Assembly (NCBI GenBank): GCA_028282005.1 | Contig: JANQIV010000268.1 | Span: 1 to 39,434 of the forward strand | Reading direction: 5' to 3' | Length of the DNA: 39,434 bases | From: Melioribacteraceae bacterium | GTDB lineage: Bacteria; Bacteroidota; Ignavibacteria; Ignavibacteriales; Melioribacteraceae | Shown here: positions 34,800-39,434 of the stretch, piece by piece | How the letters are laid out: each line of letters starts with the position of its first letter | Position numbering within the stretch: the first letter of the stretch is position 1 | Position numbers and translations under genes: made by a program | The notes under the pieces: generated by a model | The model's database searches: none | Told to the model about the DNA's origin: nothing | Seen by the model: only the letters and a program-made list of their open reading frames with translations

Positions 34800-35252
34800 T
34801 CAAAAGCTAATCTTTACTTTAGCATTTAATATATCTTCGTACTTAAGAGCTGTTTCATTTCCCTTTACGTCAAAATACAAAAAGCCGTTTTCCACTTTTA
34901 GTAACTTGCCCGTAAGTTTTTTCTTTTCATCTTTAAAATTGTATTCAACTTCAAAATTTCTATTAATGTGTTTTTGAAATTGATCAATAAATTTCAGCGG
35001 CCTATCCACACCTGGCGAAGAAACATCCAATCTATACTTTGAAGTGATCAGTTCTTCATCTTCAATAATTTTGTTCATTTCCCGGCTGATGTCGGCACAC
35101 AAATTGGTGGTTATCCCTTCGGAGTTGTCTATAAAGACTTCAATAATCCTGTTGTTGTTATCGCCTCTGAAAACTATATCGATCAGTAAACAACTGTGTT
35201 TGCTTACTATTTCTTTTAATTTTGCTTCTATTTCTACTTTTTTCATAACCAT
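34800..35252 (-). CDS. rimP: Ribosome maturation factor RimP
   Basis: This 150-residue protein has the RimP pattern: IDIVFRGDNNNRIIEVFIDN, CADISREMNKIIEDEELITS and YRLDVSSPGVDRPLKF, then an SH3-like C-terminal domain. It aids 30S maturation. It is the first gene of the rimP-nusA-infB operon. Two ATGs two codons apart (35250-35252 and 35244-35246) could serve as start. Neither has a strong ribosome binding site, because the T-run of an upstream hairpin occupies that position. Confidence 0.95.
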   Translation of the reverse strand: MVMKKVEIEAKLKEIVSKHSCLLIDIVFRGDNNNRIIEVFIDNSEGITTNLCADISREMNKIIEDEELITSKYRLDVSSPGVDRPLKFIDQFQKHINRNFEVEYNFKDEKKKLTGKLLKVENGFLYFDVKGNETALKYEDILNAKVKISF

Positions 35253-35322: not shown

Positions 35323-35384
35323 TTTGCCAGATTTAAAGATTTAAGTTCTGCGGGAAGTTATTCTCAATGTCAAGTAATGGTTTT

Positions 35385-35459
35385 GTCGTTCCCGCATGCA
35401 TTTAGCGGGAATCTATTTACAATACTTGTGGATTCCCAATTAAAGCACACGGGAATAAC
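35385..35459. repeat. Imperfect palindromic repeat element (REP/MITE-like)
   Basis: Two 31-base arms in inverted orientation (35385-35415 and 35429-35459) are separated by a 13-base spacer. Each arm contains the core TTCCCG...GGGAATC, which is itself partly palindromic. Comparing the left arm with the reverse complement of the right arm gives mostly matches with scattered transitions, as expected for an old decayed copy. A further GCGGGAA stretch at about 35350-35357 may be a fragment of another copy. It lies between the rimP leader and the Tic20-like gene. Confidence 0.65.
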
Positions 35460-35473
35460 ACTACTCTAATAAT

Positions 35474-35824
35474 TTATTTTATCACACGCATATTCAAGGG
35501 GTATAAATAACTCTCACCTTCATTTGCTTTTACCGAGGCAATAATAACCATAATAAAACTGAACAGGCCAATAACCACAAGCAGCGGTATGCCTATCAAA
35601 ACAATAATCAGAATTGCAGAAATAATTGAATAAATCGTAATTGAGATCTGAAAATTCAGAGACTCTTTACCCTGCTCGTTTACGAATGGAATTTCATCTT
35701 TTTTAATTAGCCAAACCACAAGCGGGCCAACGATATGCCCCATCGGAAAAAAGAAAAACGCAAACGCAGAAAGGTGGCAAAGCATGCCCCACATTCTTTC
35801 TTCTTTTGATAAGCTTAAATTCAT
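35474..35824 (-). CDS. Tic20-like small membrane protein (DUF4870)
   Basis: This 116-residue protein begins KEERMWGMLCHLSAFAFFFF and has GPLVVWLIKKDEIPFVNEQG followed by KESLNFQISITIYS and a hydrophobic pair of helices to about residue 100. This is the DUF4870/Tic20-like pattern, with three to four membrane helices; function in bacteria is unknown. It stands alone between a palindromic repeat downstream and a 134-base gap upstream. That gap shows no RNA gene or clear promoter. Confidence 0.88.
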   Translation of the reverse strand: MNLSLSKEERMWGMLCHLSAFAFFFFPMGHIVGPLVVWLIKKDEIPFVNEQGKESLNFQISITIYSIISAILIIVLIGIPLLVVIGLFSFIMVIIASVKANEGESYLYPLNMRVIK

Positions 35825-35958: not shown

Positions 35959-36903
35959 TTACATTTCATCCGTACTGAATAGTAATCTTTGAACCGTATC
36001 TTTATCAAACGAACAGTTAATTATATGATTATTAATATTCGATTTATAGTTGTCGAAGTTCTGGAAAAATATTTCACCTATTTCGTATTCCTTTTGAAGA
36101 GTCGTATTAAATATTGCAGGATCATCAGTTGATAAAGTGAAGAAAATGTCAGAATCTAACCATTTTTTTAGTGGATGATTTCTTAAATTAGGAGTTAGAT
36201 TTAATGATTGATTACTAGTCAAGCAAACATCAATTTTACCAAATTTTTTACCGTCATCAATCAACCAATCTGCAATTGAAAGTCCATGAGCAATTCTATC
36301 AGGATTAAGCTCGCTTACAATTGCTCTTGCAAAATCTTCATTTGTTGTTTCACCAGCATGTGTTAAAAGATTCAAATTTACGTCTCTAGCTTTTTTAAAT
36401 ATTTCTGCTACCTCTTTTGGTCTTGCTAAATTTTCATCTCCTCCCATACTAATTCCAACCACTCCAAATTCTTTATACTCTTCATTACTAAAAATTATTT
36501 CTTCAAAACTTCGAGCTGAAAACTGCCATGGTAAATCAATTATAAACCTGACAGTTTTGTTTTTCTTCGATAATAAATTATTAAATTCTTTTAATAATTT
36601 TTTAAGATCGATATAAAAGGTTTTAATCAAAGCGTAATTCAATTGGATTTCAGAATAAACAATATTTTGATTATCCATATATTCTAAATAATCATTAAAA
36701 ACAGAAACATACTTTTCAATACCATTTAAAAAATTATATCCAAAGCGAAGTTGTGCAAGAAACCTGCCAAAAGGTTCAGAATTTAAATCATAAAAGGAAA
36801 TTGGAGGGAAAAAATATTCAGATGTATCCCAAAATTCTTGAATATGTTTATTCCAAATACATCCCTCCAAATGAACATGAAGTTCAAAATTATTAGTCTC
36901 CAT
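35959..36903 (-). CDS. Adenosine-deaminase-like metal-dependent hydrolase
   Basis: This 314-residue TIM-barrel hydrolase has all zinc and catalytic residues of the adenosine deaminase family: HVHLEG (His9, His11), THAGE (His182, Glu185), RIAHG (His206) and STDDPAIF (Asp260, Asp261). A GGDEN stretch (154-158) and SNQSLNLTPN (230-239) also match. It should deaminate an adenine-containing nucleoside or similar purine. It is shorter and more divergent than housekeeping adenosine or aminofutalosine deaminases, and its first 11 bases overlap the transglutaminase-fold gene. That coupling suggests a role in an accessory system, not in purine salvage. The substrate is unknown. Confidence 0.85.
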   Translation of the reverse strand: METNNFELHVHLEGCIWNKHIQEFWDTSEYFFPPISFYDLNSEPFGRFLAQLRFGYNFLNGIEKYVSVFNDYLEYMDNQNIVYSEIQLNYALIKTFYIDLKKLLKEFNNLLSKKNKTVRFIIDLPWQFSARSFEEIIFSNEEYKEFGVVGISMGGDENLARPKEVAEIFKKARDVNLNLLTHAGETTNEDFARAIVSELNPDRIAHGLSIADWLIDDGKKFGKIDVCLTSNQSLNLTPNLRNHPLKKWLDSDIFFTLSTDDPAIFNTTLQKEYEIGEIFFQNFDNYKSNINNHIINCSFDKDTVQRLLFSTDEM

Positions 36904-38314
36904 TTTGATTATTTTTATATTTTTTAATAAGCATGTATCTTTTTGCCATTAAGTCAGCCATGATTTCATTTAATGAATCTTTCATTAATGATGTAAGAGG
37001 ATATTTTATTACATGGTTAATATCCATCACAACTGGGTTTGTTTCTCCTATTTTTGCGCCATAATCTATTGGAACATATTTTTCTTGATCTTCATCGAAG
37101 AACTCAAGGTAAACATGATTATTTGTCTGAGGGTTAAATTCACGTCCCATATATAAACAAATCTTTACCTTTTTATTTGTATTGAGAGCAATATAGGAAA
37201 GAAGTGATACTAAAGCTTTGCAATTACCAGTTTTTGTTCGAGCAGTATTTATAGGATGCTTTACTATTTTGTCTATGTTAGTATTTGTTAATCCATTTAG
37301 ATATTCATGAATCATTTCAAGTGAAACATTATTATCTAGATCAATATTATCACCCTTCAATATGGGATAAATGTCATTCTTAACAAATGGGTTTGATAAT
37401 TGATCCCTTATGTCTTTTAACATAGTATACTCAGATATGCTACCTAGTTCATTTGCTATTTTTAACCGCGTTTCATTATCAACAATGTTTCTGTATGCCT
37501 GTAAAGCAATTGCACTTCGTCTGAGATCATCTCTAAACAAGTGATCTTCAAATTCTTTCTGCTCAATAAATTTTTTTAAAAATTCTTTTATTTTTTCTTT
37601 GTCTAAATATTTTGTTTCATTTGATTGATGAAGATTATAAAGCATAAAACTTATACTTTCAGGATCAATTTGAGCAAAATATCTATAAAAATTTGTCTCT
37701 GGTTCCTTATCTATAATATCTTCAATCCCACCAGAAAATAAACGAAAAAATAAATTTGATGCAGAATCTACTCCTAGTTTTTGACAAATAACGGCTCCAA
37801 AAAGGTATTGATCATACAACTTTAAAGCATATTCTTTTTCCTTGTAATTGGCTTCCATGTATGGAATACACATAGCCATTTGGTATGCATATGCGTACCT
37901 ATGCTTTTCTTCAATTATATTCCCTTTTTCGATAAGTCTGTATAAATACTGGCCGAATAAAAAAATACTGAATTGATTAGCAAAATAGTATAAGGGATTA
38001 TCTTTCCAATCTTCTAAAGGGCCTGTAATAGATATTAGCTCATTACTATTACCAATCTTTAATTCCTTTTTTCCAAGTAATGTTGCTGAACTGACTCTTA
38101 AAATAAATTCTATTTGACTATCAGCAGCAAATCCCTTTGGCAAATCAGTAATCCCTTCAAATAACTTATCAAATACTTCATTATTTTCACCAAGGTATTC
38201 GTAATATAAGGTACAAATATTGATTAAATTTAATGTTTCTCCAAAATAGTTTTTGGCAACCTTGCTATTTATATTCTGAGCTGCATCAAAAAGTTTATCA
38301 CTTAGATTATCCAT
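36893..38314 (-). CDS. Uncharacterised protein with C-terminal transglutaminase-like cysteine domain
   Basis: This 473-residue protein has no signal peptide. Residues 1-340 are mostly helical and unrecognised. The C-terminal part shows a transglutaminase/papain-like triad in order: Cys365 in RTKTGNCKALVSLLSYIAL, His400 in NNHVYLEFFD and Asp417 in YVPIDYG. Such domains act as cysteine proteases, amidases or cross-linking enzymes. The start shares one base with the stop of the preceding small gene, and its end overlaps the deaminase gene by 11 bases. Which reaction it performs cannot be told from sequence. The triad is seen; the family assignment is by pattern. Confidence 0.72.
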   Translation of the reverse strand: MDNLSDKLFDAAQNINSKVAKNYFGETLNLINICTLYYEYLGENNEVFDKLFEGITDLPKGFAADSQIEFILRVSSATLLGKKELKIGNSNELISITGPLEDWKDNPLYYFANQFSIFLFGQYLYRLIEKGNIIEEKHRYAYAYQMAMCIPYMEANYKEKEYALKLYDQYLFGAVICQKLGVDSASNLFFRLFSGGIEDIIDKEPETNFYRYFAQIDPESISFMLYNLHQSNETKYLDKEKIKEFLKKFIEQKEFEDHLFRDDLRRSAIALQAYRNIVDNETRLKIANELGSISEYTMLKDIRDQLSNPFVKNDIYPILKGDNIDLDNNVSLEMIHEYLNGLTNTNIDKIVKHPINTARTKTGNCKALVSLLSYIALNTNKKVKICLYMGREFNPQTNNHVYLEFFDEDQEKYVPIDYGAKIGETNPVVMDINHVIKYPLTSLMKDSLNEIMADLMAKRYMLIKKYKNNQNGD

Positions 38315-38664
38315 TATTCACACCCACAATAATTATCAAGTCCTTGAATTATCAATAATTTTGCTAAAGTTAGATAAGGGATATTGGAAAATTCTTCTGC
38401 TAACCAAACATCAGCACTGACAATAAATGCTTCAATTAGTTCATTTCCCGTAAATTCCTTTTTTAGAGCCGGGTACCTATCTTCACGGCAAATTGCTTTA
38501 TATATTCGACCTTGTCTTGCTTCGAGCCAATCCAGGGCTTTTGCTTTATAATCTCCAAACCCTTGAAAATCATTGTCAAACACAGCTTTTCCAAATTTTT
38601 CGTAAAGTTGTTCATCTGTTAATTTGTTTAATTCTTCAATTTCTTTCATTTTACTTTCATCCAC
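38314..38664 (-). CDS. Small helical protein of unknown function, first gene of cassette
   Basis: This 116-residue protein is acidic and predicted mostly helical, with no membrane segment, ending LDNYCGCE. The start is GTG at 38662-38664, 5 bases after a strong GGGAGG ribosome binding site; an in-frame ATG five codons later is less well placed. Its stop overlaps the start of the transglutaminase-fold gene by one base. I do not recognise a family. As the first, small and strongly translated gene it could be a sensor, adaptor or antitoxin-like partner, but that is only a guess. Confidence 0.7.
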   Translation of the reverse strand: MDESKMKEIEELNKLTDEQLYEKFGKAVFDNDFQGFGDYKAKALDWLEARQGRIYKAICREDRYPALKKEFTGNELIEAFIVSADVWLAEEFSNIPYLTLAKLLIIQGLDNYCGCE

Positions 38665-38864
38665 AACAACCTCCCTTTATTATAATTAATTTTTACAATA
38701 TCATTTTTTAGAATCGTACATTTGTAGGTAAGCAAACCAAGTCTTCAAAATAAATGGACAATAAATCATTCAATATTTTAATCAAAACTAAAATAAAAAA
38801 AGGTCACATTCATATCAATCTAAATTAATAAAACTTTTTCTATCTAAAGATAAGCGATCTTAAA

Positions 38865-39434
38865 TTAACGGGTTCGCTGCTCAGCTATCTTAAATATTTG
38901 ACTTTTAGCATAAACTGTAAGTGTCAATCCTCTCGCAACCATAAAGACTGTCATTGCCAGCCAGAGGCTGTGGTTGCCTATAATATCTTTAGTTAAGTAG
39001 TAGGTTGGCAAAAATAGAACAAATGTGCAGATAATCATTGAGTTGCGCATGGCTTTTGTAGCTGTTGCACCTATAAAAACTCCATCCCAAATAAAGCAGA
39101 CACTATTAATTATCGGGGCAATAATTGTCCAAATTAAAAAAGGTAAAGCTAGTTCAAGTAAAAATTCTTTGTCTGTAAAAAGTATAAAAATCTGCTCACC
39201 GAAAAGAAGGTAAATTAAACTTAACAAACCACCCAAAGCCATTCCCCAGTAAAAAGAATATTTTATTGCCTTCTTCAAATTGTGCTCATCTTTTGCACCA
39301 ATGTAAGTGCCCACAAGGCTTTCGGCTGCAAAGGCAAAACCGTCAACTCAGTAAGCTAAAATCATCCAGAGCTGCATTAAAAGTGTGTTCACCGCGAGAA
39401 GGTTATCGCCAAACTTTGCGGACTCTGCAGTAAA
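38865..39434 (-). pseudogene. MATE-family efflux transporter fragment with in-frame stop codon
   Basis: The minus-strand frame is open from the right edge, reading FTAESAKFGDNLLAVNTLLM then QLWMILAY, hits TGA at 39350-39348, and continues in the same frame as VDGFAFAAESLVGTYIGAKD and four more membrane helices to a TAA at 38865. The segment around the stop matches the DinF-like MATE pattern (AY.xDGFAFAAE). MATE proteins export drugs and metabolites using a sodium or proton gradient. Other genes here end with TGA, so it is a normal stop in this genome. The stop is therefore a nonsense mutation or a sequence error. The 5' part lies outside the window. Confidence 0.72.

What the first reader, a model, noticed from the sequence alone, without database searches (positions are those of the whole stretch)
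35959..38664. Unfamiliar three-gene cassette: small helical protein, transglutaminase-fold protein, adenosine-deaminase-like enzyme
Three minus-strand genes are fused by overlaps of 1 and 11 bases behind one strong ribosome binding site, in an AT-rich stretch between a decayed palindrome and a broken transporter gene. Seen directly: a C-H-D cysteine-enzyme triad in the second protein and a complete adenosine deaminase metal site in the third. Adenosine deaminase domains occur in at least one anti-phage system (RdrB of RADAR), and cysteine-protease folds recur in conflict systems. The inference is that this could be a defence or nucleotide-signal module in which a small sensor and a protease control a deaminase. 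I do not know this combination.
Basis: partly seen in the sequence, partly recalled or inferred. Interest (0 to 1): 0.72.

Follow-up and report, generated by a model that had tools for sequence, protein, structure and literature searches.

The report
Acquired deaminase–protease operon, function unknown
A rare block of three tightly overlapping bacterial genes (a small helical protein, a probable cysteine peptidase and a strongly diverged adenosine deaminase) sits between two ordinary genes that touch in relatives; it is probably an acquired accessory module, possibly anti-phage, but no other genome searched carries the trio.

Summary
The anatomy is confirmed: three minus-strand genes (38664-38314, 38314-36893, 36903-35959) overlap by 1 and 11 bases behind one good ribosome-binding site, at 29% GC against 33% for the window. 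In two relatives the flanking MATE transporter gene directly adjoins rimP, so the stretch was probably inserted. Gene 3 is an adenosine deaminase with all metal and catalytic residues. It is no ordinary salvage copy: the genome has another one, it falls below the ADA equivalog cut-off, and its tree branch is among the two longest. It is not RADAR, Cad1 or Kongming by any partner gene. It keeps the acidic residue that housekeeping enzymes have and both Kongming deaminase types lack, which favours nucleosides over nucleotides as substrate. The transglutaminase fold of gene 2 is plausible but weakly supported. The small protein has probable relatives on two Streptomyces plasmids, each overlapping an unrelated Lit-like HExxH peptidase gene, which suggests a portable partner of peptidases. 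Best reading: a mobile conflict-type module with the small protein regulating a peptidase and the deaminase as a second effector. Defence is unproven.

The parts
38314..38664 (-). Gene 1 (P0003): 116-aa all-helical protein, GTG start
   Evidence: ORF; no Pfam, PADLOC or NCBIfam family; probable relatives P0004 and P0006 on two Streptomyces plasmids; low-confidence model with six helices only
38665..38690 (-). Leader with ribosome-binding site GGGAGG, 5 bases before the GTG start
   Evidence: sequence
36893..38314 (-). Gene 2 (P0002): 473 aa, about 330-aa helical N-terminus plus C-terminal transglutaminase-like domain with C365, H400, D417
   Evidence: Pfam Transglut_core E 0.069, below cut-off; local TGase profile ranks it above 200 shuffles; hhalign not significant; no relatives found
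35959..36903 (-). Gene 3 (P0001): 314-aa diverged adenosine deaminase, H9/H11, E13, H182, E185, H206, D260, D261
   Evidence: Pfam A_deaminase E 4.1e-31; TIGR01430 124 bits, below the 216.55 cut-off; tree
35474..35824 (-). DUF4870 membrane protein gene, also absent between MATE and rimP in two relatives; probably not part of the operon (134-base gap, GC3 0.40)
35370..35480 (.). Two REP-like palindromes (TTCCC..GGGAA) between DUF4870 and rimP
38865..39434 (-). 3' part of a DinF-like MATE gene, one in-frame stop, cut by the contig end; one border of the insertion
34800..35252 (-). rimP; other border of the insertion

Best explanation
The three genes are one horizontally acquired accessory operon and most likely a conflict module (anti-phage or toxin-antitoxin-like). 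Shown: a single overlapping transcription unit, inserted between MATE and rimP, with an adenosine deaminase that has a complete active site and is fast-evolving. Probable: the small helical protein belongs to a family whose other members overlap genes for an unrelated Lit-like zinc peptidase, so it is a portable partner of peptidase effectors. Inferred: the small protein binds gene 2 and holds it inactive, or senses an infection product. On a trigger, the transglutaminase-fold enzyme cleaves or modifies a host or phage protein. The deaminase, which keeps the acidic residue that contacts the nucleoside 5'-hydroxyl, converts adenosine or deoxyadenosine to (deoxy)inosine as a second effector, or to deny salvage nucleosides to the phage.
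For: Overlapping operon with one RBS. Empty site in two relatives. Low GC and GC3. A separate ADA elsewhere in the same genome scores 278 bits on TIGR01430 against 124 for P0001. P0001 has a very long tree branch, like Vibrio KomA. H-x-H-L-E-G as in housekeeping ADAs, against HLRG and HLNG in Kongming. The small protein's relatives precede HExxH peptidases in 2 of 2 intact cases, with overlaps of 4 and 14 bases, and the peptidases are unrelated to gene 2. P0007 resembles Lit, E 0.006. Papain-fold transglutaminase-like peptidases are reported as effectors in bacterial conflict systems (PMC8195603).
Against: The trio is known from one genome only. No defence genes, integrase or tRNA border were seen. 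No PADLOC family hit for genes 1 or 2. Against whole collections the small-protein match is only E 0.6. The transglutaminase assignment is weak. Structure models were too poor to use. No activity data exist.
Confidence: 0.4

Rival explanations
1. Kongming-like signalling: the deaminase makes an inosine-type signal that the small protein senses, and the transglutaminase-fold enzyme is the effector in place of the SIR2 NADase.
For: Same logic of ADA plus sensor plus effector in one overlapping operon; Kongming operons seen on Zymomonas and Vibrio plasmids; mechanism described in PMC12948488. Kongming ADAs are themselves not monophyletic (AU p 0.0009), so an independent recruitment is possible.
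Against: No HAM1-like sensor. P0001 keeps the acidic 5'-OH-contacting residue that both Kongming ADA types replace by R or N, so a nucleotide substrate is less likely. P0001 does not group with the Zymomonas type (AU p 0.004); grouping with the Vibrio one is not excluded (0.17).
Confidence: 0.15
2. A non-immune accessory operon: a scavenging or regulatory adenosine deaminase acquired together with a peptidase-like protein of metabolic or stress function.
For: Complete ADA active site with the housekeeping substrate residue; a position inside the Bacteroidota ADA clade is not excluded (AU 0.52); the flanking genes are ordinary translation and transcription genes.
Against: A second, ordinary ADA exists in the genome; extreme divergence; unknown, taxonomically isolated partners; low GC.
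Confidence: 0.27
3. A type II toxin-antitoxin-like pair (genes 1 and 2) next to a deaminase co-transcribed by chance.
For: The small protein precedes a larger enzyme with overlap, as in TA pairs; the pair without ADA exists in Streptomyces with another enzyme.
Against: The 11-base overlap of genes 2 and 3 argues for a selected translational link; no DNA-binding domain recognised in gene 1.
Confidence: 0.13
4. Gene 2 is not a transglutaminase-fold enzyme; the C-H-D pattern is chance and the protein is a helical scaffold. (A question about one part; it can be true together with any of the readings above.)
For: Pfam E 0.069 and below cut-off; hhalign P 0.03, not above all shuffles; AF2 pLDDT 42.
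Against: Residues C, H and D fall in the right order within GNC, NHV and PIDYG motifs; the local TGase profile scores it above all 200 shuffles.
Confidence: 0.2

Closest known systems
Kongming (KomA adenosine deaminase, KomB HAM1-like, KomC SIR2)
   Same: Three overlapping genes including a small, fast-evolving ADA of about 320 aa; mobile
   Different: No HAM1 or SIR2 gene; the substrate-pocket residue is acidic here, R or N in KomA; different partners
RADAR (RdrA, RdrB)
   Same: Contains an adenosine deaminase catalytic site
   Different: No AAA+ ATPase; P0001 is 314 aa; RdrB model 11.4 bits against a cut-off of 800
Cad1 (CARF-adenosine deaminase of type III CRISPR)
   Same: ADA part aligns (PADLOC CARF_ADA E 3e-18)
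   Different: No CARF domain in the protein; type III CRISPR genes were not seen next to it
Housekeeping adenosine deaminase (TIGR01430)
   Same: Fold, metal site, HxHLEG motif
   Different: 124 bits against cut-off 216.55; own genome has a separate 278-bit copy
Lit-like HExxH peptidases with an upstream small protein (Streptomyces plasmids)
   Same: Homologous (probable) small first gene and overlapping operon layout
   Different: Second gene is an unrelated metallopeptidase; no deaminase
Papain-fold transglutaminase-like peptidase effectors of bacterial conflict systems (PMC8195603)
   Same: C-H-D triad, proposed peptidase effector role
   Different: No STAND, EAD or other fused conflict domain detected in gene 2

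Membership tests
Adenosine deaminase superfamily (PF00962) | Profile match above gathering score and HxH, HAGE, HG, TDDP metal/catalytic residues | tested here: met
   108.7 bits against 27; residues at 9, 11, 182, 185, 206, 260, 261
Housekeeping adenosine deaminase equivalog (TIGR01430) | Score above 216.55 bits | tested here: not met
   124.3 bits; own-genome copy 277.7
RADAR | RdrB-type deaminase (NF041744) | tested here: not met
   11.4 bits against 800
RADAR | Adjacent RdrA AAA+ ATPase | tested here: not met
   Neighbours are MATE and genes 1-2 on one side, DUF4870 and rimP on the other; the region beyond the MATE end is off the contig
Kongming | HAM1-like gene and SIR2 gene in the operon | tested here: not met
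   Absent; present in L010 and L077 controls
Kongming | ADA groups with KomA | tested here: inconclusive
   Rejected with Zymomonas type (p 0.004), not rejected with Vibrio type (p 0.17), long branches
Cad1 | CARF domain fused to ADA | tested here: not met
   Match covers only profile 342-554 of 605; protein is 314 aa
Transglutaminase-like superfamily (PF01841) | Profile score above cut-off | tested here: not met
   13.9 bits against 23
Transglutaminase-like superfamily (PF01841) | C-H-D triad in order | tested here: met
   C365, H400, D417; alignment covers C and H
Anti-phage defence system | Protection from phage | not testable with these tools
   needs a plating assay
Anti-phage defence system | Recurrent co-occurrence and location in defence islands | tested here: not met
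   No second copy of gene 1 or gene 2 among the Bacteroidota genomes sampled nor of the trio in plasmid, phage and viral collections

The most novel reading that the evidence does not exclude
A new kind of bacterial immune operon in which a portable small helical sensor/inhibitor is combined with interchangeable peptidase effectors (transglutaminase-fold here, Lit-like HExxH in Streptomyces) and, here, with a nucleoside-acting adenosine deaminase.
Probability: 0.2. Interest if true: 0.78.

Novelty: new variant of a known kind. Interest (0 to 1): 0.42.

Why it matters
Deaminases that make inosine nucleotides are a newly recognised arm of bacterial immunity (RADAR, Cad1, Kongming). An operon that pairs a diverged deaminase with a putative protease and a small partner protein, with a pocket residue pointing to nucleosides, would extend that theme. 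It would also point to a small protein that plugs into different peptidases. If it proves non-immune, it is a minor oddity.

Tried and rejected
The P0002 hit in G412 (E 1.4e-4, 56 residues) is antisense to a multihaem cytochrome-like gene and interrupted by a stop: chance. Weak small-protein profile hits in actinobacteria checked here (L021, L022) lie inside or across unrelated genes, and L014, from the Bacteroidota class search, likewise: chance. A suspected similarity of gene 2 to the Lit-like peptidases (FYRYFAQID against YRRFAEID) is not significant: hhalign P 0.14, z 0.3 and 0.6. AF2 single-sequence models of genes 1 and 2 have pLDDT 54 and 42, so no fold search was run. An alignment of ADAs was too diverged to seed a viral-contig scan. 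No Rfam match in the window. Repeats around the cassette are AT-rich chance pairs with no clear target-site duplication. Literature searches for ADA plus transglutaminase defence found no description of this trio.

Full report
Observation. The three minus-strand genes are exactly as described: P0003 (38314-38664, 116 aa, GTG start), P0002 (36893-38314, 473 aa) and P0001 (35959-36903, 314 aa), with overlaps of 1 and 11 bases and a GGGAGG five bases before the first start. The cassette is 29.2% GC (window 33.5%), with the lowest third-position GC of the 14 genes measured (0.19-0.21, though pnp at 0.21 is close). The upstream neighbour is the 3' part of a MATE transporter gene with a single in-frame stop, cut by the contig end. 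The downstream neighbours are a DUF4870 membrane gene, two REP-like palindromes, rimP, nusA and infB.

Insertion. In relatives L031 (G345) and L043 (G490) a MATE gene directly precedes rimP; the L031 gene is intact and 61% identical to the window's fragment. The DUF4870 gene and the cassette therefore lie in an insertion at a site that is otherwise MATE-rimP. At least one other relative has different genes there (L028), so the spot varies.

Gene 3. P0001 is an adenosine deaminase (Pfam E 4e-31) with every metal and catalytic residue. The same genome has a second deaminase on another contig (L002, 30% identical). That copy scores 277.7 bits on the ADA equivalog model, whereas P0001 scores 124.3, below the 216.55 cut-off; the two Kongming deaminases score 262.6 and 173.1. 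No deaminase closer than about 32% identity was found in 164 genomes of the order or 390 of the phylum at strict thresholds, nor on plasmids (at most 36% over half the length) or phages. In the tree P0001 has a branch of about 4 changes per site, like Vibrio KomA, and no supported place. A position with the Bacteroidota deaminases is not excluded (AU 0.52). Grouping with the Zymomonas-type Kongming deaminases is rejected (0.004), and with the Vibrio one it is not (0.17). The Kongming deaminases are not monophyletic themselves (0.0009), so absence of grouping says little about function. One residue is informative: ADAs with a legible motif that are not in a Kongming operon carry H-x-H-L-[D/E]-G, as P0001 does, while the Kongming enzymes carry HLRG or HLNG. 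From knowledge of the mouse enzyme, the acidic residue contacts the ribose 5'-hydroxyl. KomA works on dAMP (PMC12948488), so loss of the acidic residue there fits a phosphate, and its retention here suggests a nucleoside substrate. This is inference from three Kongming-type sequences.

Gene 2. P0002 has no family above cut-off. Transglut_core is the best match (E 0.069) and covers the triad. A profile made from transglutaminase domains of related genomes ranks P0002 above 200 shuffles (6.8 against 4.3 bits), but hhalign does not separate it from shuffles. I treat the fold as probable (about 0.75 to 0.8). No relative was found in plasmids, phages, viral contigs or genome contigs, nor in 395 phylum and 164 order genomes. 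The pattern-based scans find close relatives only.

Gene 1. The best hit in 72,556 plasmids is WP_266773371 of Streptomyces sp. NBC_00257 (27% over 95% of the length, E 0.6). The collection-wide E-value alone is not significant. It is strengthened by a z-score of 14 against shuffles, profile E-values of 1e-8 for a single comparison, and the fact that it falls on a complete 115-aa gene over its full length. That gene is also the first of an overlapping two-gene unit whose second gene is 474 codons long. A second plasmid has a 56% identical small protein in the same layout. Identities shared with P0003 are not clearly enriched among positions conserved between the two Streptomyces proteins (19 of 31 against 56% overall), so I put the homology at about 0.8. 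A remnant without a peptidase was found in a third Streptomyces (L017). The second genes are 39% identical HExxH proteins (HESAH and HEAAH plus FAE.DAD); one of them, P0007, resembles Lit (E 0.006) and M48 peptidases (E 0.006). They are unrelated to P0002 (z 0.3 and 0.6). If the homology holds, the small protein is a portable partner of peptidases of different catalytic class, which is the most suggestive new observation here.

Known systems. Neither RADAR (RdrB model 11.4 bits against 800, no ATPase), Cad1 (no CARF domain) nor Kongming (no HAM1, no SIR2) fits. Papain-fold transglutaminase-like peptidases are described as effectors in bacterial conflict systems (PMC8195603). I found no paper describing this trio.

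Conclusion. Solid: an intact, inserted, accessory three-gene operon with a diverged but complete deaminase. Probable: a cysteine-enzyme fold for gene 2 and peptidase-partner family membership for gene 1. Hypothesis: an anti-phage or toxin-antitoxin-like module, about 0.4. The genome sampling is limited (fewer than 2000 genomes by profile, and no metagenome scan was available), so rarity is a statement about these collections only.

Noticed in passing
L010 3551-4507 (HVHLRG), L081 (HVHLRG) and L077 2536-3516 (HVHLNG): Kongming-type deaminases replace the acidic residue of the ADA HxHL[D/E]G motif by Arg or Asn, a possible marker for nucleotide-acting defence deaminases; the Zymomonas and Vibrio types do not form one clade.
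   Followed up: partly
L005 5004-6772 and L016 3998-5627: Streptomyces plasmids carry an overlapping pair: small 115-126-aa protein plus Lit-like HExxH peptidase, both unnamed in annotation; possible toxin-antitoxin or exclusion pair.
   Followed up: partly
window 35474-35824 and L002 8-373: Both adenosine deaminase genes of this genome have a DUF4870-family gene nearby; possibly coincidence.
   Followed up: no
window 38865-39434: MATE transporter gene has one in-frame stop where a relative reads through, then runs off the contig: a pseudogene or a sequencing error.
   Followed up: partly
window 35389-35455: Two REP-like TTCCC..GGGAA hairpins between DUF4870 and rimP, the only ones of this form in the window.
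   Followed up: no
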